Positions 8,134 to 62,335 of a stretch of DNA of 64,000 nucleotides are shown here, one piece after another. The stretch comes from a virus. The position numbers were made by a program, and so were the translations under genes. The notes below the pieces were generated by a model. It was not told where the DNA came from and did no database searches. It saw nothing but the letters and a program-made list of their open reading frames with translations. Each line of letters begins with the position of its first letter. Position 1 is the first letter of the stretch. The stretch is from the IMG/VR virus record IMGVR_UViG_3300038696_000205, positions 1-64,000 of that record; one strand, given 5' to 3'.

Positions 8134-10209
8134 TTAATTACTTAGTGGCATATTAATTTTACCGTGTGACTTATAACCTACTATTTCAAAATCATCAATA
8201 CTATAAGAATAAATATCTTTAGCTTTATTTAATTTTAATCTAGGTAATTCAAAAGGTTTGTTTAGTAATTGAGTTTTAAGTTCCTCAACATGGTTACTAT
8301 AAATGTGTACGTTAGTTAAATCACCAATAAGTGTTTCTGGAATCATACCGACTTGTTGTGCTAACATTTCTAATAACAATGCATACGATGTAATGTTAAA
8401 CGGTAACCCAAGACCCACATCAACACTACGTTGATGCCATTTAAGTGAAAGTGCTCTTTCTGGTGTTGGCTCCCAATAGTTATTCTCAAAGTCGATAGTT
8501 AAATCATCATTATATTCCATACCAGTTTCATAATTATTACTAAACCATTCCTTATATCTTTCCTTATAAGTTAATTCTCTAGTATAAACCTCAAAGGACC
8601 AATGACAATTATGGTTAATAATATTATTGACGGTATAAGTATGGTTGTTGGCTACTGATAAATTGTATACTGTACCCTCAAAACCATGAATCGTTTCTTT
8701 ATCATATACCCGCAACCAAAGTTTATCACCATCGAAGATAAATTTATCACTATTATTTTTATTCTTTGAGGTTTGAATTGAATAAGTATTATTTTGGTTA
8801 ACTTCTCTACCTTCAATGATAGTTTTTTCTGGTCTATGTTGATAATATAATGAACACTTTAAACCTACTTTAGCATATAATATTTGCATATTAAAAGCAA
8901 TGTTATCAGATATTGTGGTGATACTATAACCATCTTTTGTTTTACAACCATCGGCATCTTCATACCCTTCAATAAATTTAACTATTAATTCTTTTTTCCC
9001 ATTTAATATGAATTCTGGTATTTTTTTATTTTTAGCACCAGAACCGAATTCACTTAAAATCAATTCCCATTTCTTTTGTTTAAAACAATACTTTTTAACG
9101 TTTTCACCAGAGTTAGCCAATTTTGCTAAAGGTACGATACCACCAATCTTCCCATTAATTAACTCAAATTGTGTATCGTTAATACTTAATAATGTTTCAC
9201 CCTTTTCGATTAACCAACCATCACCTAAAAAGTAACCCATTAAATACCATTGTCTTTCGTCATCAATAATTTCTTCATAATTTTTTGATGAAAATTGGTT
9301 TTGTTTTAGTGAGTAATTAATTATAAAGTCTTCTTCCTTTTGTGGTATTGGTATGGCAACATAATCACCATTTTCCATTTCACCAGCATCAATATAACCC
9401 TTACCTTTGATTAAAAATGGGTGATTATGAGTACATTTTATTGGATGAGGGGAACCACAATATCTAAATGACACTAATTTTGTATCATGAACTTTAGTTT
9501 TCATTAACTCATAAACCTCATTATATGAACCATCCTCCGTTAAAACCAAATCACCCTCACGTACTTTTTCAATTGGTATGTATTCACCACTAATTGTTTT
9601 TACTAGAGAACCCTCAACAAAACAAGGTGGTAATGTCATATTCTCAATTTCATCAACGTTCCAGGCACTGACAAGCATTCGTCTACTATCTGGATTAGTT
9701 TTAAGTGTATTTATTAAATCCTGAATCTGATTTACACCAGGATTATCATCGGATGCTCCCCAACCAACCCATTGTTGACCATATATCGGACCAAGCTCAC
9801 CCCACTTATTTGCGAAGTCTTCATTTGTCTTAATTTTATCTACAAACTCGCTCATTGATAAATGTCTAAATTCATTAGGGGCTATTTTTTTATAGTCTGA
9901 ATTATCCATAACCTCACATCTAATTTGTTTTAAATAAGCAGCATAAGAATCGCCATTCCAAATATTAACCCCGTTTAATACTAGGGGTCTAATATTGGTG
10001 CCACCGCTTAAAAACCAAAGTAACTCATAAATAATCCCCTTAGTAAACATTTTCTTTGTCGTTAACAATGGAAACCCATCACGCATGTCTATTTTTAACG
10101 TACTAGAGAATAATGATAATGTACCAGTACCAGTTCTATCACCCTTAACGTCACCATCATTCAATATCTTCCTAACTATTTTTAAATATTTTTTATCTAC
10201 TTTATTCAT
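8134..10209 (-). CDS. thyA: Thymidylate synthase with embedded intein
   Basis: Makes dTMP from dUMP and methylene-tetrahydrofolate, supplying phage DNA synthesis. The N-extein has the dUMP/folate motifs RTGTGTLSLF and GPIYGQQWVGWG and the Arg pair DSRRMLVSAWNVDE; the C-extein has CHWSFEVY, LKWHQRSVDVGLGLPFNI and DVH-type NVHIYSNH. Residues 196-534 of the 691-aa ORF are an intein that splits LPP from CHWSF, so the catalytic Cys exists only as the +1 residue after the intein. Spliced enzyme would be 352 aa, longer than the usual 260-290 owing to an insertion around residues 90-130. The product is inactive unless splicing occurs. Its start overlaps the upstream gene by 8 bases. Confidence 0.93.
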   Translation of the reverse strand: MNKVDKKYLKIVRKILNDGDVKGDRTGTGTLSLFSSTLKIDMRDGFPLLTTKKMFTKGIIYELLWFLSGGTNIRPLVLNGVNIWNGDSYAAYLKQIRCEVMDNSDYKKIAPNEFRHLSMSEFVDKIKTNEDFANKWGELGPIYGQQWVGWGASDDNPGVNQIQDLINTLKTNPDSRRMLVSAWNVDEIENMTLPPCFVEGSLVKTISGEYIPIEKVREGDLVLTEDGSYNEVYELMKTKVHDTKLVSFRYCGSPHPIKCTHNHPFLIKGKGYIDAGEMENGDYVAIPIPQKEEDFIINYSLKQNQFSSKNYEEIIDDERQWYLMGYFLGDGWLIEKGETLLSINDTQFELINGKIGGIVPLAKLANSGENVKKYCFKQKKWELILSEFGSGAKNKKIPEFILNGKKELIVKFIEGYEDADGCKTKDGYSITTISDNIAFNMQILYAKVGLKCSLYYQHRPEKTIIEGREVNQNNTYSIQTSKNKNNSDKFIFDGDKLWLRVYDKETIHGFEGTVYNLSVANNHTYTVNNIINHNCHWSFEVYTRELTYKERYKEWFSNNYETGMEYNDDLTIDFENNYWEPTPERALSLKWHQRSVDVGLGLPFNITSYALLLEMLAQQVGMIPETLIGDLTNVHIYSNHVEELKTQLLNKPFELPRLKLNKAKDIYSYSIDDFEIVGYKSHGKINMPLSN
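8608..9624 (-). mobile_element. ThyA intein with LAGLIDADG endonuclease
   Basis: 339 residues. Starts at Cys1 (CFVEGSLVKT), has the block B TxxH-type motif THNH at intein residues 65-68, and ends with block F/G ...TYTVNNIINHN followed by Cys+1. Two dodecapeptide motifs, LMGYFLGDGWL (about 128-138) and FIEGYEDADGC (about 217-227), identify a LAGLIDADG homing endonuclease. All splice-junction residues (C1, HN end, C+1) are intact, so splicing is expected. Confidence 0.92.
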
Positions 10210-11301: not shown

Positions 11302-12129
11302 ATGAATAGAGAAATTATACCAAAAGTAAAATTAATTATGGGCAAGGCCAATGAAACGGCCAGGGAGTATGATGACTCTATGGTGAGACCAGAACATATT
11401 ATGTTGGCAATTTTAACTGACGATAGTAATTCATGTATTACTTACCTATCGAAAATGGGTGTAAATTTAGACAACCTTTATGATGAAATAACCGAATCAA
11501 TAAAGTCACAGGAATTAAAGACCACCAACATATATGTTAGGAAACTTAAACTACCTTTTAGCGATGAGGTTAAGTTGGCATTTAAATTGCTAGATAAAGA
11601 ATCAGAAGGTGTTGGGTTTACCGTTATTAATACGTCACACATATTACTGGCCTTATTAACATTCCCAAAACTACACATTACTAAAATTTTAAAAACAAAA
11701 AAAGTCACACATACAACCTTTAAAAATAAAATTATGGAATTAAGTAACGGTTTTAAGGAAAATATAGAAGTAATTAAAAATTCCATTAAAGATGATGGTG
11801 ATGATTTAACGATAGGGCGTGGTAAAAATGAAAATCAGACCATTAAAAATGAAACAAAAACCCCAGCACTTGATAATTTTTGTAGGGATATAACCAAGGA
11901 TGCCAAAAATGGTAAATTAGACCAAGTTATTGGTAGGGCCAAGGAAATCAAACGTGTTTCACAAATTTTAGCCAGACGTAAGAAAAACAACCCAGTCCTT
12001 ATAGGTGAACCTGGAGTTGGTAAGTGTTTTTCTTCTGATACTGAGGTAGTTATTAAAAATGATTTAACTGGTGAAGTATTTAAAATTAAAATCGAAGATT
12101 TATTAAAACGATTGCCAACCCCTAGTTAA
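11302..12129 (+). CDS. clpC: ClpC fragment 1 (N domain, start of AAA1) with intein-1 N part
   Basis: 275 aa. Residues 1-150 form the Clp N domain with two repeats ([12 protein letters not shown], then [12 protein letters not shown]), for substrate or adaptor binding. Residues about 185-241 begin AAA1 ([20 protein letters not shown]) and run to the Walker A GEPGVGK. There the reading frame continues without a break into Cys242 and 34 intein residues ([20 protein letters not shown]...) and stops. This half-P-loop cannot bind ATP until it is ligated to fragment 2 by protein trans-splicing. Extein part is 241 aa. Possible roles of a phage ClpC are to redirect or replace the host ClpC-ClpP protease; this is inference. 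Confidence 0.93.
12025..12126 (+). other. Split intein 1, N fragment (34 aa)
   Basis: Starts with the nucleophile Cys after GVGK and has block A-like [10 protein letters not shown]. It ends before block B, so the break is much closer to the N-terminus than in DnaE-type split inteins (about 100 aa). Partner: residues 1-121 of the fragment 2 ORF. Confidence 0.85.
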
Positions 12130-12177
12130 CTAATTTAACGTTAGGTATTGACTTTTTAAATTAAACCGTATATTTAT

Positions 12178-13623
12178 ATGAAATATATAGATATGAAAAT
12201 TAATTATAAAAAGAATGGTAACCATAGTGTTGAATTTAACGAATATTTTAAAACTGTTGATGATTTAAAATTATTCATTAAAAATAATAATAAATTTATA
12301 AATGTAGGTGTTTTAACTAATGATATTACTAACATTTATTATGAGTTAGTGAAATTAGAAGAATCTATCAAGTCAAGCGTTTTAGATAGATTCTTAGTTA
12401 GTAAATTTAATTTTAAATTCAAAAGACCAAATAATATTAATTTTTGGTTAGAAAGAGGTTTTGGAATTTATGAATTTAATGAATATGTTGGGGTTAAAAT
12501 AAATAAATTAGGAAATAATACCGAAAATATATTCAAGTTTAACAATTTTAAATTTAAAATTTTAGGAATTCCAAAATGTAATTTATGTGATTCTGATTTA
12601 ATAATTGAACCTACAATTGGTAGGTATGAAATTAAAGGGTGTTTAAATATTAATTGTGAAACCCATAAAAATGAAACGGTAAGTACAATTAAACAATTAG
12701 CATTTTTACCAATTAATTTATATGAAAATAAAAATAATAGAATTAAGGTTAATAGTAAGTTATATAAAGAGTATTGGTTATTAAAAGGGTTGTCTTATGA
12801 TATTGCTAATGAAAAAATTAATGAAATTAAAGAGTTGTTAGTTAATATCACTGTAAACTCTTTTGATTATTATAAAATTACAACTGATTTAAATGATTTT
12901 GAAATAAATAAAATCATTAATAAGCAATCATCTTGGTGTATTGAACATTGGTTAAGTAAGGGGTTAGATATTAACGAGAGTAAAAGTAAAGTTAGTGAGG
13001 TACAAGGTAAAAATGCTGATAAATTAGTTAAACTTAGAAAAAAATATCCAGAAAGATATGGCGCAACGACTGAAACACAACTACAGTATTGGATAAATAA
13101 AGGTTATAACTTAAAGGATGCTGAAATTAAATTGAGTGAGAGACAAACAACATTTTCAAAAGAAATATGCGTCCAAAAATATGGTGAAGAAAAAGGATTA
13201 GAAAGATTTATTAATAGACAAGAAAAATGGTTAAATAATTATAAAAGAGTTAATTTTTCTAAAATTTCACAAGAATTATTTTGGGATGTTTTAAATAACA
13301 ACCCAAATATTTTAAATGAAAATATTTATTTTGACACATTATTAGATGGCAATAGAGATGATTCTGGTAAAAATAATGAATATCGACTAAAATTGGGGGA
13401 ATCTTATATATTACCAGATTTTTTTGATAAAACAAACGGTAAAATTATTGAGTTTGATGGAACTTATTATCATAGAAAAACTCCAGAAAATAGTAAAAGG
13501 GAAGATAAGAGAGATAAGATGATTTTAGATGGTGGCTATAAAGTATTACACGTAACTGAAAAGGATTATAGAGAAGATAAGCGAAAAGTAATAAATAAAT
13601 GTATAGAATATTTAAAAGAATAA
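12178..13623 (+). CDS. Homing endonuclease in split-intein gap 1 (Vsr/EDxHD-like)
   Basis: 481 aa (a second ATG at 12193 aligns better with its paralogue at 15178). Middle region has CNLCDSDL and CLNINCETH, a likely zinc-binding pair, followed by repeats of WLSKGLDINESKSKVSE type and SERQTTFSKEICVQKYGEEK. The C-terminal 80 residues contain IIEFDGTYYH, then KRDKMILDGGYKVLHVTEKD, resembling the Vsr-like nuclease fold of the EDxHD homing endonucleases (I-Bth0305I type) known from fractured phage genes. It lies wholly between the two intein halves and probably spreads the cassette by cutting empty P-loop alleles. Nuclease fold assignment is by eye. Confidence 0.8.
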   Translation: MKYIDMKINYKKNGNHSVEFNEYFKTVDDLKLFIKNNNKFINVGVLTNDITNIYYELVKLEESIKSSVLDRFLVSKFNFKFKRPNNINFWLERGFGIYEFNEYVGVKINKLGNNTENIFKFNNFKFKILGIPKCNLCDSDLIIEPTIGRYEIKGCLNINCETHKNETVSTIKQLAFLPINLYENKNNRIKVNSKLYKEYWLLKGLSYDIANEKINEIKELLVNITVNSFDYYKITTDLNDFEINKIINKQSSWCIEHWLSKGLDINESKSKVSEVQGKNADKLVKLRKKYPERYGATTETQLQYWINKGYNLKDAEIKLSERQTTFSKEICVQKYGEEKGLERFINRQEKWLNNYKRVNFSKISQELFWDVLNNNPNILNENIYFDTLLDGNRDDSGKNNEYRLKLGESYILPDFFDKTNGKIIEFDGTYYHRKTPENSKREDKRDKMILDGGYKVLHVTEKDYREDKRKVINKCIEYLKE

Positions 13624-13627
13624 AAAT

Positions 13628-13990
13628 ATGAATGAATTAAAAAAAATTACAAAATCATTTGATATGTCAAATTATAGTATATTAACTGATACTGGGTTTG
13701 AAAAATTAGAAAAGTTGCATGAAACTATCCCATATGAAGTTTACCAACTTAAATTAGATAACGGTAACGAACTTAAATGTGCTGATAATCATATAGTATT
13801 CTTCCAAGATACTTTTGATGAAATCTTCGTAAAAAATCTAAAAGTTGGAGATAAGATTGAAGTAGAAGGTAATAAAGGAGGGTCAGTTGTTGAAGTAATC
13901 AATTTAGGTTATGAAGAAGTAATGTACGATTTTGAACTTATAGAGGGTTCTAATAGACGTTATTATACCAATGGAATTCTATCACATAAT
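13628..13990 (+). other. Split intein 1, C fragment (121 aa)
   Basis: Carries block B-like LKCADNHIVFF, a block F-like segment (YEEVMYDFELIEGSNRRYYT) and block G NGILSHN, followed by Thr+1 of the P-loop. It has no endonuclease domain inside; that function is in the separate upstream ORF. Confidence 0.85.
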
Positions 13991-15085
13991 ACGGCAATAG
14001 TCGAGGGAATCGCAAGCCTAATCAATGAAGGTAAAGCACCAAGAGTATTACTGGATAAAAAGATATACTCATTAAACCTAACCTCAATGGTCGCTGGTAC
14101 AAAATACAGAGGACAATTCGAGGAAAGGATGAAGGCCATTATGGACGAGTTAGAAGAAAGTAAAAACATTATACTCTTTATAGACGAACTTCATACAATC
14201 GTGGGTACTGGAAATGCATCTGGTAGTATGGATGCCGCAAATATTCTTAAACCAGCATTAGCCAATGGCGGAATACAGTGTATTGGTGCCACCACGTTAG
14301 ATGAGTACAGGGAAAATATCGAAAAGGATAAGGCCCTTGATAGAAGATTCCAATCAGTTATAGTGGAAGAAACTACAATGGACGAAACCCAAACTATACT
14401 TGAAAATATAAAGGGTAAATACGAAGACTACCACAAAGTGACCTACACTGATGAGGCTATTGTGGAATGTATTAAATTATCCAATAGATACATATCGGAT
14501 AGGTCCATGCCAGATAAAGCCATCGATGTACTTGATGAAGCTGGGGCATCTACTAATGTAAACCAAAAAATACCAGAGATAATCAAAAAACTGGAGGCCA
14601 GAAAAGACCAAATAAATATTAGTAAACTAGAAGTAGTTAAAAAACAAAATTACGAGGAAGCTGCCAAACTTAGAGATGAAGAACGCAAAATAAACGATGA
14701 GTTGGATAAGTCAAAAAAAGAGTGGAACGATTCTTTGGATAAAAAACGTACAATAGTCGATGTTGAATTGGTGTCGGAAGTTATATCCATGATGACTGGA
14801 ATTCCAATTAGTAAGGTTTCCTCACAAGAAAACAAAAAACTTATAACCATGGACAAGGATTTGATGGGTAAGGTTATCGGTCAAGATGAAGCGGTCAGTA
14901 AAGTCGTAAGAGCAATTAAAAGGAACCGTTTGGGTATCAAGGATAAATCCAAACCAATCGGGTCATTTATATTCCTAGGTTCAACTGGTGTAGGTAAGTG
15001 TATTTGCTCGAACACTCAGATTAAAATTAGGTCTAAAATCGATGGTGTTGTTAAAACCATCAATATAGGTGAATTGGATAGCTAA
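13628..15085 (+). CDS. clpC: ClpC fragment 2 (AAA1 body, UVR, start of AAA2) flanked by two intein parts
   Basis: 485 aa in three sections. Residues 1-121 are the C part of intein 1, ending YYTNGILSHN. Residues 122-457 are ClpC: TAIVEGIASL completes Walker A of AAA1, Walker B is IILFIDELHT, the arginine-finger region is KDKALDRRFQSV, a UVR-like segment follows (NYEEAAKLRDEERKINDELD), and AAA2 begins (GQDEAVSKVVRAI) up to GSTGVGK. Residues 458-485 (CICSNTQIKI...) are the N part of intein 2. Two trans-splicing events are needed to build a continuous ClpC. The UVR segment favours ClpC over ClpA or ClpB. Confidence 0.93.
   Translation: MNELKKITKSFDMSNYSILTDTGFEKLEKLHETIPYEVYQLKLDNGNELKCADNHIVFFQDTFDEIFVKNLKVGDKIEVEGNKGGSVVEVINLGYEEVMYDFELIEGSNRRYYTNGILSHNTAIVEGIASLINEGKAPRVLLDKKIYSLNLTSMVAGTKYRGQFEERMKAIMDELEESKNIILFIDELHTIVGTGNASGSMDAANILKPALANGGIQCIGATTLDEYRENIEKDKALDRRFQSVIVEETTMDETQTILENIKGKYEDYHKVTYTDEAIVECIKLSNRYISDRSMPDKAIDVLDEAGASTNVNQKIPEIIKKLEARKDQINISKLEVVKKQNYEEAAKLRDEERKINDELDKSKKEWNDSLDKKRTIVDVELVSEVISMMTGIPISKVSSQENKKLITMDKDLMGKVIGQDEAVSKVVRAIKRNRLGIKDKSKPIGSFIFLGSTGVGKCICSNTQIKIRSKIDGVVKTINIGELDS
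14999..15082 (+). other. Split intein 2, N fragment (28 aa)
   Basis: Begins with Cys after STGVGK (CICSNTQIKIRSKIDGVVKT) and ends INIGELDS. It is similar to intein 1 N and even shorter. Partner is the first 223 residues of the fragment 3 ORF. Confidence 0.83.
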
Positions 15086-15177
15086 TTATCACCCAAAACC
15101 AGTTGAACCAATATTTAATTATCAACAAATAGGTCTTTCTCAAATAATTAACATAGTTATTGCTAAACGTAATAGGT

Positions 15178-16710
15178 ATGTTAATTATAAAAGAGAGAAA
15201 AAAGTATGAATTTAATGAAGTCTTTAAGGCTAATAATGATTTTAATGAATTTTTATTATTAGAATATAATAAACTTAATTTTGATAATGATGATATACAA
15301 TCATCAATTAAGATTCTATATGATAAGTTAGTTAATGATGAGGGAGTTGTCAAATACTTAAGATTAACTAGGTGGGTATCAAAAGAATTTAAATTTAAAT
15401 GTAAGAATATATTACAAGAGTGCTTCTGGTTAGAGCGAGGGTGGTCATCTAATGAAACCAAAGAAAAGATTTCAAATATTATGGTGGAACGAAGTAATAA
15501 GGCTAGTATAACTAAAAGTGAATTAAAAAAAGATATTATATTTGACGACACTGAAAAAGATATTAAATATAATAAAATTAAATTTAAATCAATACATGAA
15601 CCAAGGTGTGGTAAGTGTAATTCAACTTTAGAATTAAAAAAACGGAATAAAAATAATATATTGGGTGATTTTTATTATGAAATAATAAAATGTTCTAACG
15701 ATAGTTGTGAAACCCATAATATGGGTAGGAATAATAAATATCGTGCGTTTCTACCATCAATTAAGGCTGAATGTATTATAAACGAGATAACTAATAATAT
15801 TAAGGGTAGTAATAAATTATGTGTAAAGTCTTGGATTAATAAGGGTTATTCAGAAAAAGAAGCTAAAAATATAATTAGTGAAATCCAAAGTACTAACTCG
15901 AAATTAGTTAAAAATAGATTTATAGTTAGTAAAGAAAATTTAAAAATGAATGGCTTTAGTGATGATGAAATAATTAAAATTTGTCAAACGCCAACTCGGA
16001 GAGAATTTTATGAAGGTAAAGGACTTACCGATGATGAAATTACAAGTAAGATAAGGAAACAACAAAAGTACGCTGCATCATTTGTTGATTATGAAAAAAG
16101 ATTATTACCTAGTAATATTGAATATTGGGTTAATAAAGGACATGGGTACATTGAGGCTAAACAAAAAGTAATTGAAAGACAAACAACATTCTCAAGGGAA
16201 ATATGTATTGAAAAATATGGTGAAATCGAAGGGTTAAAGGTATTTACTGAAAGACAAAATAAGTGGTCTAAATCATTAAATAATGGTGGTAAAATGAAGA
16301 ATGGTTACTCTAAAATTTCTCAACATTTATTCCATATATTATTAAATTCATATGAAGTTGATGATAGGGTTAAAATTATGTTCGCAACCCATAATGGTGA
16401 ATTTAAGTTAAATAAATGTGAAAATGAGGGGGGTATTTGGATGTATGATTTCACAGATGTAAAAAATAAAAAAATAATCGAATATCATGGGGATATGTTT
16501 CATGGTAACCCTAAAAAATATTTAGCAGAAGATTATCCACACCCTTTTAGAAAAACAATCACTGCACAAGAAATGTGGGATAAAGATAAAAAGAAGATGG
16601 ATATTGCTTATCAAAATGGTTTTGAGGTATTGGTAATTTGGGATAGTGAATATAGGTGGGGGAATAAACAAAAAATAATCGATAAGTGTCTCGCATTTAT
16701 CAATAAATAA
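15178..16710 (+). CDS. Homing endonuclease in split-intein gap 2 (Vsr/EDxHD-like)
   Basis: 510 aa from the ATG at 15178 (an upstream in-frame ATG lies at 15160; 15178 aligns with the paralogue). Clearly homologous to the gap 1 protein: zinc pair CGKCNSTLEL...CSNDSCETHN, repeated WINKGYSEKEAKNIISEIQ units, and IERQTTFSREICIEKYGEIE. The C-terminal nuclease domain shows KKIIEYHGDMFHGNP and FEVLVIWDSEYRWG, with the E...HGD...H and D...W/K pattern of EDxHD/Vsr-type enzymes. The AT-rich codon use is unlike the neighbouring clp exteins, consistent with a mobile gene. Confidence 0.82.
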   Translation: MLIIKERKKYEFNEVFKANNDFNEFLLLEYNKLNFDNDDIQSSIKILYDKLVNDEGVVKYLRLTRWVSKEFKFKCKNILQECFWLERGWSSNETKEKISNIMVERSNKASITKSELKKDIIFDDTEKDIKYNKIKFKSIHEPRCGKCNSTLELKKRNKNNILGDFYYEIIKCSNDSCETHNMGRNNKYRAFLPSIKAECIINEITNNIKGSNKLCVKSWINKGYSEKEAKNIISEIQSTNSKLVKNRFIVSKENLKMNGFSDDEIIKICQTPTRREFYEGKGLTDDEITSKIRKQQKYAASFVDYEKRLLPSNIEYWVNKGHGYIEAKQKVIERQTTFSREICIEKYGEIEGLKVFTERQNKWSKSLNNGGKMKNGYSKISQHLFHILLNSYEVDDRVKIMFATHNGEFKLNKCENEGGIWMYDFTDVKNKKIIEYHGDMFHGNPKKYLAEDYPHPFRKTITAQEMWDKDKKKMDIAYQNGFEVLVIWDSEYRWGNKQKIIDKCLAFINK

Positions 16711-16745
16711 ATATAAATAAATAAAAATAAATAAAAATAAATAAA

Positions 16746-17414
16746 ATGGTGAAAGAAAAGGATAATTATTATACGTACTTAACTGGATATATTAATGACG
16801 TGATACAACCAAGTGGTGAAGTAGAATCTACTTCTGAGTTATTTAGTGATAAAAAACTAAAATTGTGGATAGTAGATGAATTAATGAAAATACCCGAAAT
16901 TAGTAAAACATTACTATGTAATTACTTTCATGAGTTATATGATTACATATTAGAAAATGAAGTTACAGATTTAGAAGACTTAGTTAAATCATTCTGTTTT
17001 AATAAAATAACTAAATGGGAAATGAATTCAGATTCCAATACAATAATATTAAAAACAGATGAATCTAGTAAAAAAATAACTAAAACAACTAAAATTAGTG
17101 AATATGAAGTCGAAACCCCAAGCGGTTGGGTTGATATAGAAGCACTACACGAGACTATTGAGTACCAAGTGTATGAATTAACCTTATTAAATGGTTATAG
17201 TTTTAAATGTGCTGATAATCATATTGTGATTAATGGTAAGGGTGAAGAAGTGTTTGTTAAAAATTTAAATGAAGGTGATGAGGTTAAAACAGACGATGGG
17301 GTCAGTAATGTTATCTCGGTTATTAATTTAGGTTATAAAGAAACTATGTATGACCTAGAATTAGATGATGATTCAGATAGAGTATATTATACCAATGGGA
17401 TTTTATCACATAAT
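16746..17414 (+). other. Split intein 2, C fragment (223 aa)
   Basis: Block B-like FKCADNHIVI and the end YYTNGILSHN match intein 1 C closely. The first 95 residues are a helical extension of unknown role. Thr+1 of the AAA2 P-loop follows. Confidence 0.83.
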
Positions 17415-18188
17415 ACGTATTTAACAAAATTATTGGCAGAGCACATATTTGGTGATGCCGATGCGCTAATTAGAATGGACATGTCCGAATACATGGAAAA
17501 ACATTCGGTATCTAGATTAGTTGGTGCACCTCCAGGATATGTGGGCTATGAGGAAGGTGGTCAATTAACCGAAAAGGTTAGACGTAAACCTTACGCAGTA
17601 ATTCTTTTTGATGAAATAGAAAAAGCACACCCAGACGTATTCAATATATTATTACAATTATTGGACGAAGGGCAATTAACGGATTCATTGGGTAGAAAGG
17701 TAAACTTTAAAAATTGTTTAATAATCATGACATCTAACGTAGGTGTTACCGAATTAAATAGTTTTGGTAAGAATATGGGCTTTGAAACCAAGAATAAATC
17801 GTTGGACGAACAGGAAAGGTCTCGCTCTATTATTCAAAAGGCACTTAAAAAGAAATTTAAACCAGAGTTCTTGAATAGAATTGATGAGGCGATTATCTTC
17901 AACAGCTTAAAACAAGAGGATATCCATAAAATTATATATATTGAATTGGAAAAATTAAAAGTTAGGGTCAAGGAAACTGGATTCGACCTAAAATTCAATA
18001 AAAGTGCTGTGGAATACATAGCTAAAAAAGGATATGATGAAGCATATGGGGCAAGACCACTTAACAGGGCAATCCAACAATACGTGGAAGACCCGATTGC
18101 CGATGAAATTCTAAACGGTAAATTTAAAGAGGGTGATACAATAAAAGTAACCCTAGACAAGAAAACGGATAAAATTGCATTAACATAA
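16746..18188 (+). CDS. clpC: ClpC fragment 3 (rest of AAA2) with intein-2 C part
   Basis: 480 aa. Residues 1-223 are the C part of intein 2, including about 100 extra N-terminal residues not found in intein 1, and end YYTNGILSHN. Residues 224-480 complete AAA2: TYLTKLLAEHIFG, the pore-loop region VGAPPGYVGYEEGG, Walker B AVILFDEIEKAHPDV, sensor-1 IIMTSNVG, the arginine-finger region FKPEFLNRID, and a C-terminal D2-small domain (YDEAYGARPLNRAIQ, sensor 2). A loop with NMGFE sits where ClpC/ClpX carry the (V/I/L)GF ClpP-docking loop, so docking to a ClpP is likely. The total extein length, 241+336+257 = 834 aa, is normal for ClpC. Confidence 0.93.
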   Translation: MVKEKDNYYTYLTGYINDVIQPSGEVESTSELFSDKKLKLWIVDELMKIPEISKTLLCNYFHELYDYILENEVTDLEDLVKSFCFNKITKWEMNSDSNTIILKTDESSKKITKTTKISEYEVETPSGWVDIEALHETIEYQVYELTLLNGYSFKCADNHIVINGKGEEVFVKNLNEGDEVKTDDGVSNVISVINLGYKETMYDLELDDDSDRVYYTNGILSHNTYLTKLLAEHIFGDADALIRMDMSEYMEKHSVSRLVGAPPGYVGYEEGGQLTEKVRRKPYAVILFDEIEKAHPDVFNILLQLLDEGQLTDSLGRKVNFKNCLIIMTSNVGVTELNSFGKNMGFETKNKSLDEQERSRSIIQKALKKKFKPEFLNRIDEAIIFNSLKQEDIHKIIYIELEKLKVRVKETGFDLKFNKSAVEYIAKKGYDEAYGARPLNRAIQQYVEDPIADEILNGKFKEGDTIKVTLDKKTDKIALT

Positions 18189-31040: not shown

Positions 31041-31481
31041 ATGTTATACACAATTTTACTGGATTTTGACGGCACTTGCGTAACCCATGAATTCCCCAAA
31101 GTGGGCGATGATATAGGTGCCGTACCAGTGCTTAAGGAACTCGTTGAAAACGGAAACCGACTTATCCTCTTTACAATGAGGGGCAGCGGTGAACTATCAC
31201 TTAAAAAATTCGGCACGGACGGTCTACAGGATGCCGTAAATTGGTTCGCCACTAACGGTATACCACTATACGGTATTCAGACCAACCCAACGCAGCACAC
31301 ATGGACCAACAGTCCAAAACCGCACGGTGATTTAATAATAGACGACACGGCAATAGGCATACCACTCATATACGACCCAAAAATAAGTAAGGGGGTTTTC
31401 GTGGACTGGAAAAAGTTAAGGGAAATGCTAATAACCTACGAGGCAATAAAAATAAAGGATAATGACAAGGAAGGAAGCTAG
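31041..31481 (+). CDS. HAD-like phosphatase
   Basis: 146 aa. Motif I is LLDFDGTCV with the nucleophilic and acid/base Asp, motif II is RLILFTMR (Thr), and motif III is GDLIIDDTAIG (acidic pair). Short-cap type, similar to the BT0820-like family of Bacteroidota HAD hydrolases. Cytosolic. Substrate, perhaps a nucleotide or sugar phosphate, cannot be told. Overlaps the next gene by 20 bases. Confidence 0.78.
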   Translation: MLYTILLDFDGTCVTHEFPKVGDDIGAVPVLKELVENGNRLILFTMRGSGELSLKKFGTDGLQDAVNWFATNGIPLYGIQTNPTQHTWTNSPKPHGDLIIDDTAIGIPLIYDPKISKGVFVDWKKLREMLITYEAIKIKDNDKEGS

Positions 31482-31794
31482 GGAAATATCGGAAACGTTC
31501 AAGTTCACAAGACGTGAACTATACGACATATTAACAAAGGCATTAAAACAAATGCCAGATGATTTCTGGACCAAAAGGAATATGTCAAATAAATCAACGG
31601 ATAACGGATTCTATTTTAACCTATGCGTTAAATTAGTGGACCTACAGGAAAACGTAAACGAGGACGAAGTGGTGGCGCACATGATTGCATTCAGGGTGTT
31701 ACATATCTTTGGAGAGTTCAGTGAAATACAACCCTATAAAAAAGCTAAAAGAATATTGCCGAAAATAACAATGAGTGAAAAACCAAAATTATAA
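31462..31794 (+). CDS. Hypothetical protein, 110 aa
   Basis: Overlaps the HAD gene by 20 bases. Helical, with MIAFRVLHIFGEFSEIQPYK near the end. No known family. Confidence 0.6.
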   Translation: MTRKEAREISETFKFTRRELYDILTKALKQMPDDFWTKRNMSNKSTDNGFYFNLCVKLVDLQENVNEDEVVAHMIAFRVLHIFGEFSEIQPYKKAKRILPKITMSEKPKL

Positions 31795-31795
31795 T

Positions 31796-32149
31796 ATGGA
31801 ACTTAAAGGAGATATATTAAGTAAAATTAAATTTATAAAAAATCTAAACGTAAAAGAATTAATTTTACAAAAATATACATACATTCCGTGGTATAAATAT
31901 TCAGATTTATTTAAAGAATCTTTTAATGATGATTTATTAAAATCAGAGTTTTTATTGAAATTAGGACCAGATAGGTTAAATATTATATATAATGAATGCT
32001 TAAATACTATTAAAAATTTAAATATACCTTCACCACATAATATAGCATTAGCCGAAGGTGTTATCTTAAGTCTAATAGCACAAGGAGATAAAATATACAA
32101 ACAAACAAATGAAAGTATGTTGATATTCAATAGAACAAAAAAAAAATAA
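31796..32149 (+). CDS. IFNRTK-tail protein A, 117 aa
   Basis: ATG at 31796, directly after the preceding stop. Contains GPDRLNIIYNE, a counterpart of GKKGLDILREQ and GPEGIEIIREQ in the next homologues, and ends SMLIFNRTKKK. First of seven tandem small genes with related C-termini. Body is helical; function unknown. Confidence 0.6.
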   Translation: MELKGDILSKIKFIKNLNVKELILQKYTYIPWYKYSDLFKESFNDDLLKSEFLLKLGPDRLNIIYNECLNTIKNLNIPSPHNIALAEGVILSLIAQGDKIYKQTNESMLIFNRTKKK

Positions 32150-32150
32150 A

Positions 32151-32489
32151 ATGGAATACATAGGATTGGTAGGTATGACAGAATACTATAAGAGCCTTAA
32201 TCTATATGATTTAGTGAGAGCGGAACCTTATCCAGATAATTGGATTGACGAAAATGAATACCTAGATGAATACTCACTGGAATTCCTAAGTAAGATAGGA
32301 AAGAAAGGTTTAGATATCTTACGTGAACAATTACTAGCCTTTGAATTATTTCGAGATGAAAAAGATTCCCCACTTCTACAAAATCACGTAAAAGAGGAAA
32401 TATTAAAGTGCTTATATAGAAGTGGGGAAGAATATAAAAAAGCTAAAATTAGTATGCTAATATTTAATAGAACAAGAAATTTAATATGA
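32151..32489 (+). CDS. IFNRTK-tail protein B, 112 aa
   Basis: Homologous to A over the middle (FLSKIGKKGLDILREQLLAF), preceded by LNLYDLVRAEPYPDNW, similar to LDISELVKSELIHEPW in protein D. Ends ISMLIFNRTRNLI. One base separates it from gene A. Confidence 0.6.
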   Translation: MEYIGLVGMTEYYKSLNLYDLVRAEPYPDNWIDENEYLDEYSLEFLSKIGKKGLDILREQLLAFELFRDEKDSPLLQNHVKEEILKCLYRSGEEYKKAKISMLIFNRTRNLI

Positions 32490-32646
32490 ACGATGTAAAA
32501 CAAAATGCCGCTAAAGAATACATAATACAAGGGATAGTGAATAACCAATACTTGGACGATTTAAATAAAATAGTCAACGGGTTAATGATGTAAGAATTTC
32601 ATATACAAAAAAATCAAAGGAAATATTTAATAGAACAAGAAAATGA
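32486..32646 (+). pseudogene. IFNRTK-tail gene C, frame broken
   Basis: ATG at 32486 gives 35 residues (MNDVKQNAAKEYIIQGIVNN...) and stops at TAA 32591. The conserved tail TKKSKEIFNRTRK lies in the -1 frame, open from 32569 to the TGA at 32644. A single indel between 32569 and 32590 would join them. Confidence 0.5.
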
Positions 32647-32968
32647 AAGTTAACGGAAGAATGAACGAGATTAAATACGTACAGGACTTAGATATAAGCG
32701 AGCTGGTCAAATCAGAACTCATTCACGAACCATGGCAAATAATCTCCGAAAACCTAAGATACCAGAACCTGGACCTAAACGATTATGAGGCCGCATTAAA
32801 AATAGGTCCAGAAGGTATTGAAATAATCCGTGAACAATTGACCGAAATAATCAGACATAGAAAAGTTCAGGAAATTATGATAGTCAATTTTATTCTAAAA
32901 ATAGAACCCATATATTAGGACACAAAAAAAGTATGGCAATATTCAATAGAACAAAAAATGCAAAATAA
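32643..32968 (+). pseudogene. IFNRTK-tail gene D, frame broken
   Basis: ATG at 32643; 91 codons to TAG at 32916. Matches B in LDISELVKSELIHEPW and IGPEGIEIIREQL. The tail KKSMAIFNRTKNAK is in the -1 frame, open from 32861 to the TAA at 32966. Same direction of shift as in gene C, with no slippery heptamer visible. Confidence 0.5.
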
Positions 32969-33104
32969 ATCCGATAACGAAAATCGTGCACTACCCAAAT
33001 ATTTAAATTTTGACCTATTTCCGCTCGCAGATGAAATGATAAGGGAATTTAAAGAAGAGGAAAAATCAAAACAAATATTTAATAGAACAAAAAATGGAAA
33101 ATGA
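32958..33104 (+). CDS. IFNRTK-tail protein E, 48 aa
   Basis: ATG at 32958, overlapping gene D's tail. Product begins MQNKSDNENRALPKYLNF and ends EEKSKQIFNRTKNGK. Its start overlaps the previous tail and its end overlaps the next start, as in the rest of the series. Confidence 0.55.
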   Translation: MQNKSDNENRALPKYLNFDLFPLADEMIREFKEEEKSKQIFNRTKNGK

Positions 33105-33243
33105 GAATTATACAATATGCCCGACCAAGATAAAAGCAGATGCTGAATTAAGTAGATTGATACAAGATGAATTTGATAAACTTATCTTAGAATCATTAAA
33201 TAAAGTAGCGTCAAAACAAATGTTTGAAAAATCAAGAAAATGA
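33094..33243 (+). CDS. IFNRTK-tail-like protein F, 49 aa
   Basis: ATG at 33094. Product MENENYTICPTKIKADAELS... ends KVASKQMFEKSRK, a diverged form of the tail. The stop overlaps the next ATG (ATGA). Confidence 0.55.
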   Translation: MENENYTICPTKIKADAELSRLIQDEFDKLILESLNKVASKQMFEKSRK

Positions 33244-33455
33244 CAGTACCAGATATTAACGAATTATTGGATAGACCAAAGGTCAGAGAACAAAAATTCG
33301 AATGGTTGACCAAACTTACATATGTAGAATCGCATCGAATCCAGACAGAGCTGGACTATGAGGTGGAGAAACTTATGGTAACCGAAACGTACCATTATGA
33401 CACTATTAACATACATACTTTTAGGTTCAGGTTCTACACGAAGATTGAAAAATAA
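33240..33455 (+). CDS. Small protein G, 71 aa, with in-frame tail after the stop
   Basis: ATG at 33240 (ATGA overlap). Ends ...FRFYTKIEK at TAA 33453-33455. The same frame continues to 33572 and contains AKSKRIFDRFIKPKEV, matching the tail of E and C. A nonsense change may have separated body and tail. Confidence 0.5.
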   Translation: MTVPDINELLDRPKVREQKFEWLTKLTYVESHRIQTELDYEVEKLMVTETYHYDTINIHTFRFRFYTKIEK

Positions 33456-33572
33456 TATCAAACGGCCAAATCAAAACGAATATTCGACAGGTTTATAAAG
33501 CCTAAAGAAGTAGATGAAAAATTTACCAAAAAAATAGCCCAAAAATTTTACCAAAAATTTTTTTGCATATGA

Positions 33573-33955
33573 CCTAACTAAATATTTAAAGTCAAAAAAT
33601 CTGGAGAACAAATAAAATTACATAATGGTACCAAAACGTTTTACCCCATATTAACCCAAAAAATTACCAGAAAAATTTTGTGAACGACATCATGTGGGGG
33701 TATATAGCACCAGTACGGGGGGTGTATAAGAGGGGTTACATAGGGGGGGTCTATGGGGGTATAGGGCACCCCTCCCTACGTTATAGCCTTAATAGGTATT
33801 CAGCTATACCCCACAAACAAACTACCGTTAGAACGTCTTAAAAGGATTCCTTTAATAACCTAATATAAAATAGGTTATTCGATGAACGGTAATTCCTAAT
33901 TTATTATGTTAAAGTTTTTTAATATAGAATAATTCTAAATAATAAAATAGGTACA
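33573..33955. other. Gene-free region with G-tract cluster
   Basis: No ORF is supported. It holds two copies of an AAATTTTACC-like element near its left edge (33530-33570), the G-run cluster at 33696-33766, and a 9-base hairpin AATAACCTA / TAGGTTATT at about 33856-33881. It separates the plus-strand operon from the minus-strand arm. Confidence 0.6.
33696..33766 (+). other. Putative G-quadruplex cluster
   Basis: G runs of 5, 6, 4, 7, 5 and 3 start at 33696, 33717, 33732, 33743, 33755 and 33764, with loops of 16, 9, 7, 5 and 4 bases. This is striking in an AT-rich genome. Confidence 0.55.
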
Positions 33956-33987
33956 AAAAAACTACCTTTATTAGAGGTAGTTTTTTT
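33955..33987. terminator. Convergent bidirectional terminator
   Basis: Thirteen-base stem AAAAAAACTACCT / AGGTAGTTTTTTT with loop TTATTAG. It ends both the plus-strand operon and the 34001-34570 minus gene. Confidence 0.85.
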
Positions 33988-38273: not shown

Positions 38274-38338
38274 GGTGTACAAAGATACGGTCTGACCCAG
38301 CAAGTTAGTAGAGTAGACTCCGTTGCACCATATACTGA
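38274..38338 (+). ncRNA. Repeated small RNA family, copy 3
   Basis: GGTGTACAAAGATACGGT, hairpin CTGAC-CCAGCAA-GTTAG, then TAGAGTAGACTCCGTTGC. ACGG / CCGT could close a larger helix. Terminator at 38356-38379. Confidence 0.75.
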
Positions 38339-46637: not shown

Positions 46638-46668
46638 TAATATTTAAACAAAAATAAATTAAAATATG

Positions 46669-46700
46669 TTTGGTAGAACCAAATAAAAGCCGTATCTTTA
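46669..46700 (+). promoter_or_regulatory. Promoter of small RNA copy 4
   Basis: TTTGGTAG, 16 bases, TATCTTTA. Confidence 0.75.
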
Positions 46701-46701
46701 C

Positions 46702-46771
46702 GGTGTACAAAGATACGGGCTGACCTAGCAAGTTAGAAGAGTAGACTCCGACCTACCTTATACTCAAATTA
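46702..46771 (+). ncRNA. Repeated small RNA family, copy 4
   Basis: GGTGTACAAAGATACGGG, hairpin CTGAC-CTAGCAA-GTTAG, AGAGTAGACTCCGACCTACC. No ORF. Followed within 20 bases by the hairpin at 46788. Confidence 0.75.
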
Positions 46772-46787
46772 AAATAAAAAATAAAAA

Positions 46788-49150: not shown

Positions 49151-49215
49151 AATGTGCAAGAGACACGGGCTGACCCAGCAAGTCAGAAGAGTAGACTCCA
49201 CCGAACCCTATACCC
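49151..49215 (+). ncRNA. Repeated small RNA family, copy 5
   Basis: ATGTGCAAGAGACACGGG, hairpin CTGAC-CCAGCAA-GTCAG (all Watson-Crick), AGAGTAGACTCCACCG. Compared with copy 4 the stem shows C for T at one arm, restoring G-C pairing. Confidence 0.75.
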
Positions 49216-50367: not shown

Positions 50368-50430
50368 ATGTACAAAGATACAGGCTGACCTAACAAGTTA
50401 GAAGAGTGGACTCCGACCTACCCTATATCG
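50368..50430 (+). ncRNA. Repeated small RNA family, copy 6
   Basis: ATGTACAAAGATACAGG, hairpin CTGAC-CTAACAA-GTTAG, AGAGTGGACTCCGACCTACC. Only copy with G in GAGTGGACTCC. Confidence 0.72.
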
Positions 50431-57880: not shown

Positions 57881-58906
57881 TTATTTAAAGAAATATTTGA
57901 AATTTTCTCCACCATAAGCATCCTTGGTCAAATTAATCATTTCGCCAACACTATAATCTCGTTCCTCAATCTTAAATTCATTAACGAAATCCTTGACTCC
58001 GAACGAACATGCGCCAGTAATTATCCTGTAACATTCTATCGCATCACCAAATGACAATACGTTATCCAACGTTAACCCTTTGTAATCTTCCACACACTTA
58101 TTACTTATCTTAAATAATAAATCAAGTTTAGCTTCTTTAATGGTTTCACCGTGCGCCCATCTATCCTCACCATCGGTAACTAAATAAAGTTTATTCTCAT
58201 CGCTTAATTTCTTCACCTCATATACATTACCCCGTTTATGTAGCACTTCGGTGAACACCCCATCAACCTTTACGTATTTCCCATCTTGCCAAAATATTGC
58301 CTTTGGGGGTAGACTTTTTTGAATCGATGTAACCTTATCCAAATATAAGTGACCACCCACCGTAGGGTTAAATCCTTCTGGAATCATTGTAAGTGAGTTT
58401 AAGTCTAAACTACCCCCAACCGTAGGATTAAATCCTTCTGGAATATTTTTAAGTGACCTTAAGTATAAACTACCATCCACCATAGGATTAAACCCCCCTG
58501 GAATCGATTTTAGACTACTTAAATCTAAAGTACCACCAACGGTGGGATTGAATCCTTCTGGAATCGATGTAAGTTTATATAAATCTAAATCACCACCAAC
58601 GGTGGGGTTGAATCCATCTGGAATAGAGATGAGATTTTCTAAAAATAAACCCCCACTAACGATTGGGTTAAATCCTTCTGGAATCGATGTTAGGTAACCT
58701 AAATATAAACTACCACCAACAATTGGGTTAAAGCTATCTGGAATCGCCGTGATATTATTTAAGAATAAATGATTTCTGACTTTAGGATTAAACCCATCTG
58801 GAATCGATGTGAGTAAATTTAAGAATAAATTATCGTTAATTATATCAATTCCTAAGAATTGATTTTCCGTTATATTTGCATATTGCATTAATTCTTCTTT
58901 AGTCAT
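57881..58906 (-). CDS. 20-residue repeat protein, 341 aa (paralogue of 60647-62335)
   Basis: Eight full copies of the 20-residue unit L-x-L-x-x-LTSIPEGFNPTVGG plus one degenerate copy (about residues 27-205), predicted to stack as a leucine-rich solenoid. The C-terminal 130 residues (FWQDGKYVKVDGVFTEVLHK ... ECYRIITGACSFGVKDFV) match those of the 562-aa paralogue and occur in many phages, with or without repeats. Likely binds a host protein. Confidence 0.7.
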   Translation of the reverse strand: MTKEELMQYANITENQFLGIDIINDNLFLNLLTSIPDGFNPKVRNHLFLNNITAIPDSFNPIVGGSLYLGYLTSIPEGFNPIVSGGLFLENLISIPDGFNPTVGGDLDLYKLTSIPEGFNPTVGGTLDLSSLKSIPGGFNPMVDGSLYLRSLKNIPEGFNPTVGGSLDLNSLTMIPEGFNPTVGGHLYLDKVTSIQKSLPPKAIFWQDGKYVKVDGVFTEVLHKRGNVYEVKKLSDENKLYLVTDGEDRWAHGETIKEAKLDLLFKISNKCVEDYKGLTLDNVLSFGDAIECYRIITGACSFGVKDFVNEFKIEERDYSVGEMINLTKDAYGGENFKYFFK

Positions 58907-60646: not shown

Positions 60647-62335
60647 TTATTGAAAGAAATGTTTAAATTGCTGACCACCATAGCTATCTTTGGTTAAATC
60701 AATCATTTCCTCAATCGTATAGTCCTTATGCTCGACCTTAAATTTCTTAACGAAATGCTTAACACCGAATGAACATGCACCAGTTATCACCCTGTAACAC
60801 TCGATTGCTTCCTCAAAGGGAAACACGCTATCTAGCGATAAGTCCTCATAATCCTTTTTGTTTCTGTTACTTATCTTGTAGATTAAATCTTCTTTTGCAT
60901 CGTTTAATGTATCACCATGCGCCCACTTACCCTGACCATCGGTGATAAGATAAAATTCTATAGGGTTGTTTAATCTCTTAACCCTATGGACATTACCCCT
61001 TTTCTTAACCACCTCAACGAATATTCCATCGACCGATATATATTTACCATCTTGCCAAAATAACGGTTGCCCGTTTAGTTTGGTGTGATTAATATATTTA
61101 AGATTTTCTAAATATAAATTACCACCAACAATTGGGTTAAAGCTATCTGGAATCGATGTAATCTTACATAAAATTAAACGACCACCAACGATTGGATTAA
61201 ATCCTTCTGGAATCGATTTTAGACTACTTAAATCTAAAGTACCACCAACGGTGGGATTGAATCCTTTTGGAATCGATATTAGACTACTTAAATCTAAATC
61301 ACCACCAACGGTGGGATTGAATCCTTCTGGAATCGATGTAAGTTTATATAAATCTAAATCACCACCAACGGTGGGGTTGAATCCATCTGGAATAGAGATG
61401 AGATTATTTAAAAATAAATTACGACCAACGTTCGGATTAAATCCTTCTGGAATCGATGTGAGATTATTTAAAAATAAACTACCACCAACAATTGGGTTAA
61501 AGCTATCTGGAATCGATGTGGGATTATTTAAAAATAAATCACCACCAACGGTGGGGTTGAATCCATCTGGAATAGAGATGAGATTATTTAAAAATAAATT
61601 ACGACCAACGTTCGGATTAAATCCTTCTGGAATCGATGTAAGTTTATATAAATCTAAATCACCACCAACGGTGGGATTGAATCCTTCTGGAATCGATGTA
61701 AGTTTATATAAATCTAAATCACCACCAACGGTGGGGTTAAATCCTTCTGGAATTGATGTAAGCTTACTTAAATCTAAAGTAGAACCCACCGTAGGATTAA
61801 CCCCCTTTGGAATCGATGTGAGTGAATCTAAATATAAACTACCCCCGACCGTGGGGTTAAAATCCTCTTGCATTGTTGTGACTGAATCTAAATATAAACT
61901 ACCTCCAACCGTAGGGCTAAACCCCTTTGGAATCGATTTAAGCTTACTTAAATGTAAGCTTAGACCCACCGTGGGTTTGAACCCATCTGGAATTGATGTA
62001 AGCTTATTTAAATATAAAGTACCCCCGACTGTAAGGTTAAACCCTTCTTGCATTGATGTGATATTATCTAAGTATAAATCACGACCAACCTTAAGATTAA
62101 ATCCTTCTGGAATCGATGTAAGTGAACTTAAATATAAATTACCCCCAACTGTGGGGTTAAACCCTTCTGGAATCGATGTAAGTGAATCTAAGTATAAATC
62201 ACGACCGACTTTAAGGTTAAATCCCTCTGGAATCGATGTGAGATTATTTAAAAATAAATTCCCGATAATTGCATCAATACCTAAGAATTCATTTTCGGTT
62301 ATATCTGCATATTCTAATAAATTTTCTTTAGTCAT
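60647..62335 (-). CDS. 20-residue repeat protein, 562 aa
   Basis: Nineteen complete 20-residue repeats (type LYLDSLTSIPEGFNPTVGGS) and one degenerate copy, about residues 27-420, then the conserved phage C-terminal domain (FWQDGKYISVDGIFVEVVKK ... ECYRVITGACSFGVKHFVKK). The DNA repeats have an exact 60-base period. The paralogue at 57881-58906 has only 8 repeats. The antisense frame is also open, a by-product of the repeat. Probably a host-interaction protein. Confidence 0.75.
   Translation of the reverse strand: MTKENLLEYADITENEFLGIDAIIGNLFLNNLTSIPEGFNLKVGRDLYLDSLTSIPEGFNPTVGGNLYLSSLTSIPEGFNLKVGRDLYLDNITSMQEGFNLTVGGTLYLNKLTSIPDGFKPTVGLSLHLSKLKSIPKGFSPTVGGSLYLDSVTTMQEDFNPTVGGSLYLDSLTSIPKGVNPTVGSTLDLSKLTSIPEGFNPTVGGDLDLYKLTSIPEGFNPTVGGDLDLYKLTSIPEGFNPNVGRNLFLNNLISIPDGFNPTVGGDLFLNNPTSIPDSFNPIVGGSLFLNNLTSIPEGFNPNVGRNLFLNNLISIPDGFNPTVGGDLDLYKLTSIPEGFNPTVGGDLDLSSLISIPKGFNPTVGGTLDLSSLKSIPEGFNPIVGGRLILCKITSIPDSFNPIVGGNLYLENLKYINHTKLNGQPLFWQDGKYISVDGIFVEVVKKRGNVHRVKRLNNPIEFYLITDGQGKWAHGDTLNDAKEDLIYKISNRNKKDYEDLSLDSVFPFEEAIECYRVITGACSFGVKHFVKKFKVEHKDYTIEEMIDLTKDSYGGQQFKHFFQ
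61121..62260 (-). repeat. Tandem 60-bp repeat array
   Basis: About 19 copies of a 60-base unit (AATCCTTCTGGAATCGATGT as the plus-strand core) in frame within the 562-aa gene. Blocks of near-identical neighbours (for example 61561-61680 compared with 61381-61500) show recent unequal recombination. Confidence 0.8.

What the first reader, a model, noticed from the sequence alone, without database searches (positions are those of the whole stretch)
31796..33572. Seven tandem small genes sharing an IFNRTK-like C-terminal tail
Endings are SMLIFNRTKKK, SMLIFNRTRNLI, KSKEIFNRTRK, KSMAIFNRTKNAK, KSKQIFNRTKNGK, SKQMFEKSRK and KSKRIFDRFIKP, while the bodies differ strongly. A shared terminal peptide on unrelated bodies suggests a docking tag, for example for a sliding clamp or another hub protein (the K-x-S-x-x-(I/M)F pattern recalls clamp-binding peptides). 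In genes C, D and G the tail is separated from its body by a frameshift or a stop.
Basis: partly seen in the sequence, partly recalled or inferred. Interest (0 to 1): 0.72.

Follow-up and report, generated by a model that had tools for sequence, protein, structure and literature searches.

The report
Small phage genes sharing one junction
A phage of Bacteroidota-type bacteria carries seven small genes in a row that end in nearly the same short sequence; that sequence is at once the end of one protein and the start signal of the next gene, so it looks more like a re-used gene junction in a partly decayed array than a proven docking tag.

Summary
The tails are real. Five of seven (A-E) are unmistakable: a 28-29 bit motif, with no match outside the cluster above 12 bits in the 119-kb record. 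F and G are weaker. The detached tails of C and D (-1 frame) and G (in-frame TAA) are confirmed. "Unrelated bodies" is only partly right: A, B and D are paralogues. C, E, F and G cannot be placed with them.

The main new result is at DNA level. In the A/B/D bodies synonymous sites are saturated, but the IFNRTK core is almost identical in nucleotides across A-E, far beyond what the shared peptide requires. The conserved block runs through the start codon of the next gene. Every tail-frame stop except the last lies within 11 nt of that start (4-nt ATGA overlap at three junctions). The best reading is a duplicated, recombining gene junction that encodes a C-terminal peptide and also the A-rich translation start of the next gene, in an array of which three units are broken.

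Sliding-clamp docking is not supported: the tail is basic and lacks the clamp-motif glutamine. No homologue was found in IMG/VR, phage records or bacterial genomes, so frame conservation between phages could not be tested.

The parts
31796..32149 (+). gene A, 117 aa, helical body plus tail SMLIFNRTKKK
   Evidence: paralogue of B and D; model pLDDT 80, pTM 0.70, tail is the end of helix 81-116
32151..32489 (+). gene B, 112 aa, tail SMLIFNRTRNLI; stop overlaps start of C (ATGA)
32486..32593 (+). gene C body, 35 aa, closed by TAA
   Evidence: weak similarity to F body z 3.5
32569..32646 (+). open stretch in the -1 frame of C, ending KSKEIFNRTRK; TGA overlaps start of D
32643..32918 (+). gene D body, 91 aa, paralogue of A and B
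32861..32968 (+). open stretch in the -1 frame of D, ending KSMAIFNRTKNAK; same tail subtype as its paralogues A and B
32958..33104 (+). gene E, 48 aa, tail KSKQIFNRTKNGK
33094..33243 (+). gene F, 49 aa, tail ASKQMFEKSRK (diverged copy)
33240..33455 (+). gene G body, 71 aa, closed by TAA
33456..33572 (+). frame of G after its TAA, with diverged tail KSKRIFDRFIK inside, not at the end
   Evidence: repeat D8 shared with E
32111..32153 (+). junction A/B: tail DNA, 1-nt gap, start of B
32448..32488 (+). junction B/C, 4-nt overlap
32611..32646 (+). junction C/D, core 20 nt before ATG, 4-nt overlap
32927..32968 (+). junction D/E, core 19 nt before ATG, 11-nt overlap
33063..33104 (+). junction E/F, core 19 nt before ATG, 11-nt overlap
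33208..33243 (+). junction F/G, core 20 nt before ATG, 4-nt overlap
31462..31794 (+). upstream gene U, 110 aa; shares an exact in-frame 16-mer (YKKAK) with B just before the tail; possible distant relative, not established
   Evidence: no profile support
33955..33987 (+). terminator-like hairpin on both strands closing the + strand gene row against the facing - strand gene

Best explanation
This is a tandem array of small phage genes that grew by duplication and recombination at a repeated junction of about 40 nt. The junction does two jobs. Read in the frame of the upstream gene it encodes the last 10-15 residues, the end of a long C-terminal helix in the one gene that could be modelled well. 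As mRNA it is the unstructured A-rich leader, start codon included, from which the next gene is translated, with ribosomes that end at the tail stop re-starting a few bases away. A, B and D descend from one gene of about 110 residues, mostly helical; other units carry other or shortened bodies. In C, D and G the body has since been cut from its tail. The tail DNA stays intact where a gene follows (C, D) because the next gene needs it, and has drifted where none follows (G). Shown: the repeat, the paralogy of A/B/D, the saturation of synonymous sites in bodies but not in tails, the stop/start geometry, the absence of RNA structure. Inferred: translational coupling, recombination as the route of spread, decay as the cause of the breaks.
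For: (1) Identical residues in A/B/D bodies share codons only as often as codon usage predicts (6/15, 6/19, 11/24 against 7.3, 8.5, 11.7). The tail core of A-E has 93% nt identity against 76% expected for the same peptides, 0 of 20,000 simulations as high; for the in-frame tails A, B, E alone p = 0.0013. (2) DNA similarity rises from background (0.31) about 30 nt before the core, is 0.9-1.0 in the core of A-E, extends over the next start codon, and is back at background 30 nt later. (3) Tail-frame stops overlap the next start by 4 nt (B, C, F) or 11 nt (D, E), or leave 1 nt (A), including the tails of C and D that are out of frame with their bodies. (4) The core lies 19-20 nt before the next ATG at four of six junctions. 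(5) The phage uses A-rich, SD-less leaders with A at -3 and -10 to -13, like those reported for Flavobacterium johnsoniae (PMC6847099), and the junctions fold no better than shuffles. (6) A, B, D are paralogues with their own tail subtype, so the D tail belonged to D. (7) G, with no gene after it, keeps IFDR but with changed codons GAC AGG.
Against: The exact core is not the leader of any other gene in the record, so ordinary leader needs do not explain its sequence. F precedes G yet has diverged. Seven copies are few, pairs are not independent, and F and G were recognised by peptide likeness. Low synonymous divergence could also mean recent gene conversion with no constraint. No related array was found to show recombination or frame conservation between phages.
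Confidence: 0.45

Rival explanations
1. The tail is a protein docking peptide or shared C-terminal helix that brings different small phage proteins to one partner (host or phage hub); the DNA likeness only reflects recent spread of the tag.
For: Four tails are in frame and terminal. Some pairs keep the peptide through codon changes: A/B p = 0.0036, D/E p < 2e-4, A/E p = 0.001; E/F and E/G 0.06-0.07. The tail is the well-predicted end of a long helix in A. E has a body with no detectable relation to A/B/D.
Against: Nucleotide conservation beyond the peptide. Three of seven tails are detached. The block runs on into the next gene. The tail is found nowhere else in the record or in other genomes.
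Confidence: 0.2
2. Unselected remnants: a recently duplicated and partly decayed array in a rapidly changing ORFan region, with tails alike only because short repeats convert each other.
For: C, D and G are broken; bodies are short (C 35 aa, E 48, F 49); no homologues; the repeats are short.
Against: Stop/start geometry is kept at all six junctions; A and B are intact although their bodies are saturated at synonymous sites.
Confidence: 0.2
3. The junction is an RNA operator: a phage or host protein binds the leader of each gene and controls the array together, as RegA does for T4 early mRNAs, or it is a processing site like those of RegB.
For: Position immediately 5' of AUG, A+U-rich, unstructured, with an upstream stop codon in the leader, as described for RegA sites (PMC3014915). 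AGAACAARA resembles the A-rich half of the RegB consensus GGAGRAYARAA given there. Core invariant but for two positions across A-E.
Against: No RegA family member in the record (possibly a fragment). The core is absent from the leaders of other genes, whereas RegA acts on some 30 mRNAs. The RegB GG is missing.
Confidence: 0.13

Closest known systems
Promoter early stem loop (PeSL) cassettes of T4-type phages (Arbiol 2010; Comeau 2014; known here only as cited in PMC4503421)
   Same: Short repeated sequences between small ORFan genes in a large phage region where genes are shuffled as modules
   Different: PeSLs are intergenic promoter plus stem-loop units; here the repeat is coding, lies across stop/start overlaps, and has no promoter box and no hairpin
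C-terminal clamp-binding peptides (bacterial QL(S/D)LF; T4 gp43/gp33/gp55 ends)
   Same: Short interchangeable C-terminal peptides on different proteins, with an F
   Different: Ser replaces the key Gln, the end is basic instead of acidic, and nucleotides are conserved beyond the peptide
T4 RegA operators
   Same: Unstructured A+U-rich sites at or just before AUG, including an upstream gene's stop codon
   Different: Confined to one array, a specific 18-nt core, no RegA found
Stop-start overlap (ATGA) translational coupling in operons
   Same: 4-nt ATGA overlap at three junctions, 11-nt overlap at two, 1-nt gap at one
   Different: Here the sequence before the overlap is itself repeated

Membership tests
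Sliding-clamp binding peptide | Q at position 1 and L/F pattern (QL(S/D)LF) | tested here: not met
   Position 1 is Ser in all seven copies; pattern is S-[KM]-x-[IM]-F (motif from PMC9690074)
Sliding-clamp binding peptide (T4 type) | hydrophobic and acidic C-terminus | tested here: not met
   A-E end RTK/RTR and have no acidic residue after the F; only F (Glu) and G (Asp) have one
Sliding-clamp binding peptide | binds a clamp encoded by phage or host | not testable with these tools
   No gp45 family match in the 119-kb record, which may be a fragment
PeSL cassette | early promoter within the repeat | tested here: not met
   No TAnnTTTG box inside any junction; sigma-70 type scan no better than shuffles
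PeSL cassette | stem-loop | tested here: not met
   z-scores -0.5 to 1.65 for six junctions
PeSL cassette | mediates module shuffling between related phages | not testable with these tools
   No related array found
RegA operator | unstructured A+U-rich site at AUG | tested here: met
RegA operator | RegA present in the phage | tested here: inconclusive
   No PF01818 match, but the record may be incomplete
Coupled stop-start gene pairs | stop overlaps or abuts next start | tested here: met
   all six junctions; coupling itself not tested
Single paralogous family | bodies homologous | tested here: not met
   met only for A, B, D; not for E and G; C/F doubtful

The most novel reading that the evidence does not exclude
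A coding counterpart of shuffling cassettes: a repeated, dual-use gene junction that writes the same C-terminal peptide onto whatever body recombines in front of it and supplies the start signal for whatever gene follows, so that the phage can assemble small-gene arrays modularly while giving every product the same end.
Probability: 0.2. Interest if true: 0.65.

Novelty: new variant of a known kind. Interest (0 to 1): 0.4.

Why it matters
If right, it is a compact way to shuffle small phage genes without losing translation, and it warns that shared protein tails in phage ORFan arrays can come from DNA-level junction repeats rather than from docking tags. The synonymous-site comparison between bodies and tails is a simple test for telling the two apart.

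Tried and rejected
Chance: rejected for A-E; F and G rest partly on DNA likeness and place.

Sliding clamp: motif not met.

Homologues of bodies: none from B, from the A/B/D alignment, in 28 virus records reached through search loci or in phage records (one E = 1 hit ignored). One hit among 295 genomes of the class of a Flavobacterium genome, at E 7.6e-4 per genome, is at chance level. A G-like ORF in L145 (E 0.0018) has a similar-looking end but was not followed further.

Fold: the model of A matched nothing at E <= 0.001 in PDB or viral models; the model of B is poor (pLDDT 59). Weak aIF2-alpha likeness of D (Pfam 0.0022, NCBIfam 0.043) is not shared by A or B and was set aside.

Programmed -1 frameshift: no canonical X-XXY-YYZ site in the overlap of C or D (read by eye). 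D could slip at AAAAA, C could not do so well, so mutation is preferred.

Gene U as an eighth member: only a shared 16-mer; no profile support.

Pure frame argument: 4-5 of 7 in frame is not significant by itself (binomial about 0.05-0.17, hand calculation).

Full report
Setting. The window is bases 1-64000 of a 119,322-bp linear virus record. Its gene content (phage-type ClpB interrupted by extra ORFs, thymidylate synthase with an intein-like insert, head/tail matches) and its TAnnTTTG promoter boxes and SD-less A-rich leaders point to a large tailed phage of Bacteroidota. T4-like character is an inference from gene content. The array is the last part of a + strand gene row, after a HAD-like gene annotated in PHROGs as phosphoheptose isomerase (31041-31481) and gene U (31462-31794). 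It faces a - strand gene across a two-way terminator-like hairpin at 33955-33987.

Check of the observation. All seven tails are present. A motif built from them gives 28-29.5 bits for A-E and 22-23 for F and G; the best other 10-mer in six frames of the whole record gives 12. In leave-one-out tests A-E stand alone, F and G do not. The C and D tails are in the -1 frame of their bodies; the G tail is in frame behind a TAA and is followed by some 25 more codons.

Bodies. B finds D and A in the record, and with tails removed A/D and B/D score z of 11.5 and 10.6 against shuffles. C/F gives 3.5 and nothing else exceeds 2.6. So there is one family of three (A, B, D), perhaps a second pair (C, F), and E and G of unknown descent. 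The tail subtypes follow this split: AGT ATG in A, B, D and TCA AAR in C, E, F, G. D therefore most likely carried its own tail before the frame was broken.

Protein or DNA? Both leave traces. For protein: A and B keep Leu through TTG/CTA and Phe through TTC/TTT; Ser is AGT or TCA; several pairs differ more conservatively than random mutation of the same number of bases would give (A/B p 0.0036, A/E 0.001, D/E below 2e-4, most other pairs 0.04-0.13 over 30 nt). Copies were picked by peptide likeness, which biases this test. For DNA: in the A/B/D bodies identical residues have identical codons no more often than codon usage predicts, so synonymous sites are saturated, while the IFNRTK core of A-E is 93% identical in nucleotides against 76% expected for the same peptides (0 of 20,000 draws; p 0.0013 with only the in-frame A, B, E). 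Among identical residues in the A/B/D core 14 of 16 codons are the same, against 23 of 58 in the bodies (pairs not independent). So the tail DNA is either constrained in itself or younger than the bodies it sits on.

Geometry. The conserved block ends only after the start codon of the next gene. The tail-frame stop overlaps that start by 4 nt at B/C, C/D and F/G and by 11 nt at D/E and E/F, and leaves 1 nt at A/B. This holds for C and D although their bodies no longer lead into the tail frame. The core is 19-20 nt before the ATG at four junctions, 26 and 28 at the others. The phage's leaders in general are A-rich at -3 and -10 to -13, as reported for Flavobacterium johnsoniae (PMC6847099), and the junction RNA is unstructured. 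The exact core is not used before other genes.

Interpretation. The simplest account that covers all of this is a repeated junction with two uses, C-terminal coding and translation start, multiplied with or between small genes by recombination, in an array with broken units. It predicts that tail DNA persists where a gene follows and drifts where none follows; G, the last unit, does show drift (GAC AGG for N/D-R, TTT ATA after it), though F also has drifted. Coupling, recombination and decay are inferred, not shown. The docking-tag idea is not excluded as a second role of the peptide: in the model of A the tail is the confident end of a 36-residue helix. The clamp version of it is not supported.

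Known systems. PeSL cassettes of T4-type phages are the nearest idea for the role of the repeat, but those are intergenic promoter/hairpin units, and neither feature is present here. RegA operators resemble the place and make-up of the junction, but no RegA was found and the core is confined to this array. No family, structure or homologue was found for any array protein that was searched, so conservation of the frame between phages, the most direct test, could not be made.

Noticed in passing
34500-63500, mostly - strand: TATCTTTG occurs 55 times in the record, mostly 20-50 nt before - strand genes and often with TTTGG or TTAGG about 24 nt upstream and a GAACAAATAAAACAA-like leader: an unusually uniform Bacteroidota-type promoter serving a long row of small genes.
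   Followed up: partly
46640-46780, 38287-38321, 49178-49199, 50380-50414 (- strand): Four dispersed copies of a repeat beginning GGAGTCTACTCTTCTAACTTGC; three run on into a TATCTTTG-containing stretch that folds as a hairpin in the one copy folded (z -2.0); no Rfam match. Possibly a repeated small structured RNA.
   Followed up: partly
11302-18188 +: A ClpB-type protease/chaperone gene appears split into several ORFs by intein-like stretches, with additional ORFs (12178-13623 and 15160-16710) in between that look related to each other and endonuclease-like.
   Followed up: no
8134-10209 -: Thymidylate synthase with an intein-like insert of about 340 residues.
   Followed up: no
57881-58906 and 60647-62335 (- strand): Two genes made of tandem SIPEGFNPTVGG-type repeats, leucine-rich-repeat-like, of different repeat number.
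   Followed up: no
37492 and 38983 (- strand ends): Two nearby 75-residue ORFs with almost identical C-termini (DEFISRAKQMCGNDINRFV), the strongest such pair in a survey of 2.1 Mb.
   Followed up: no
31735-31750 and 32433-32448: Exact 16-nt repeat TATAAAAAAGCTAAAA, in frame as YKKAK in both gene U and gene B just before the tail position.
   Followed up: partly
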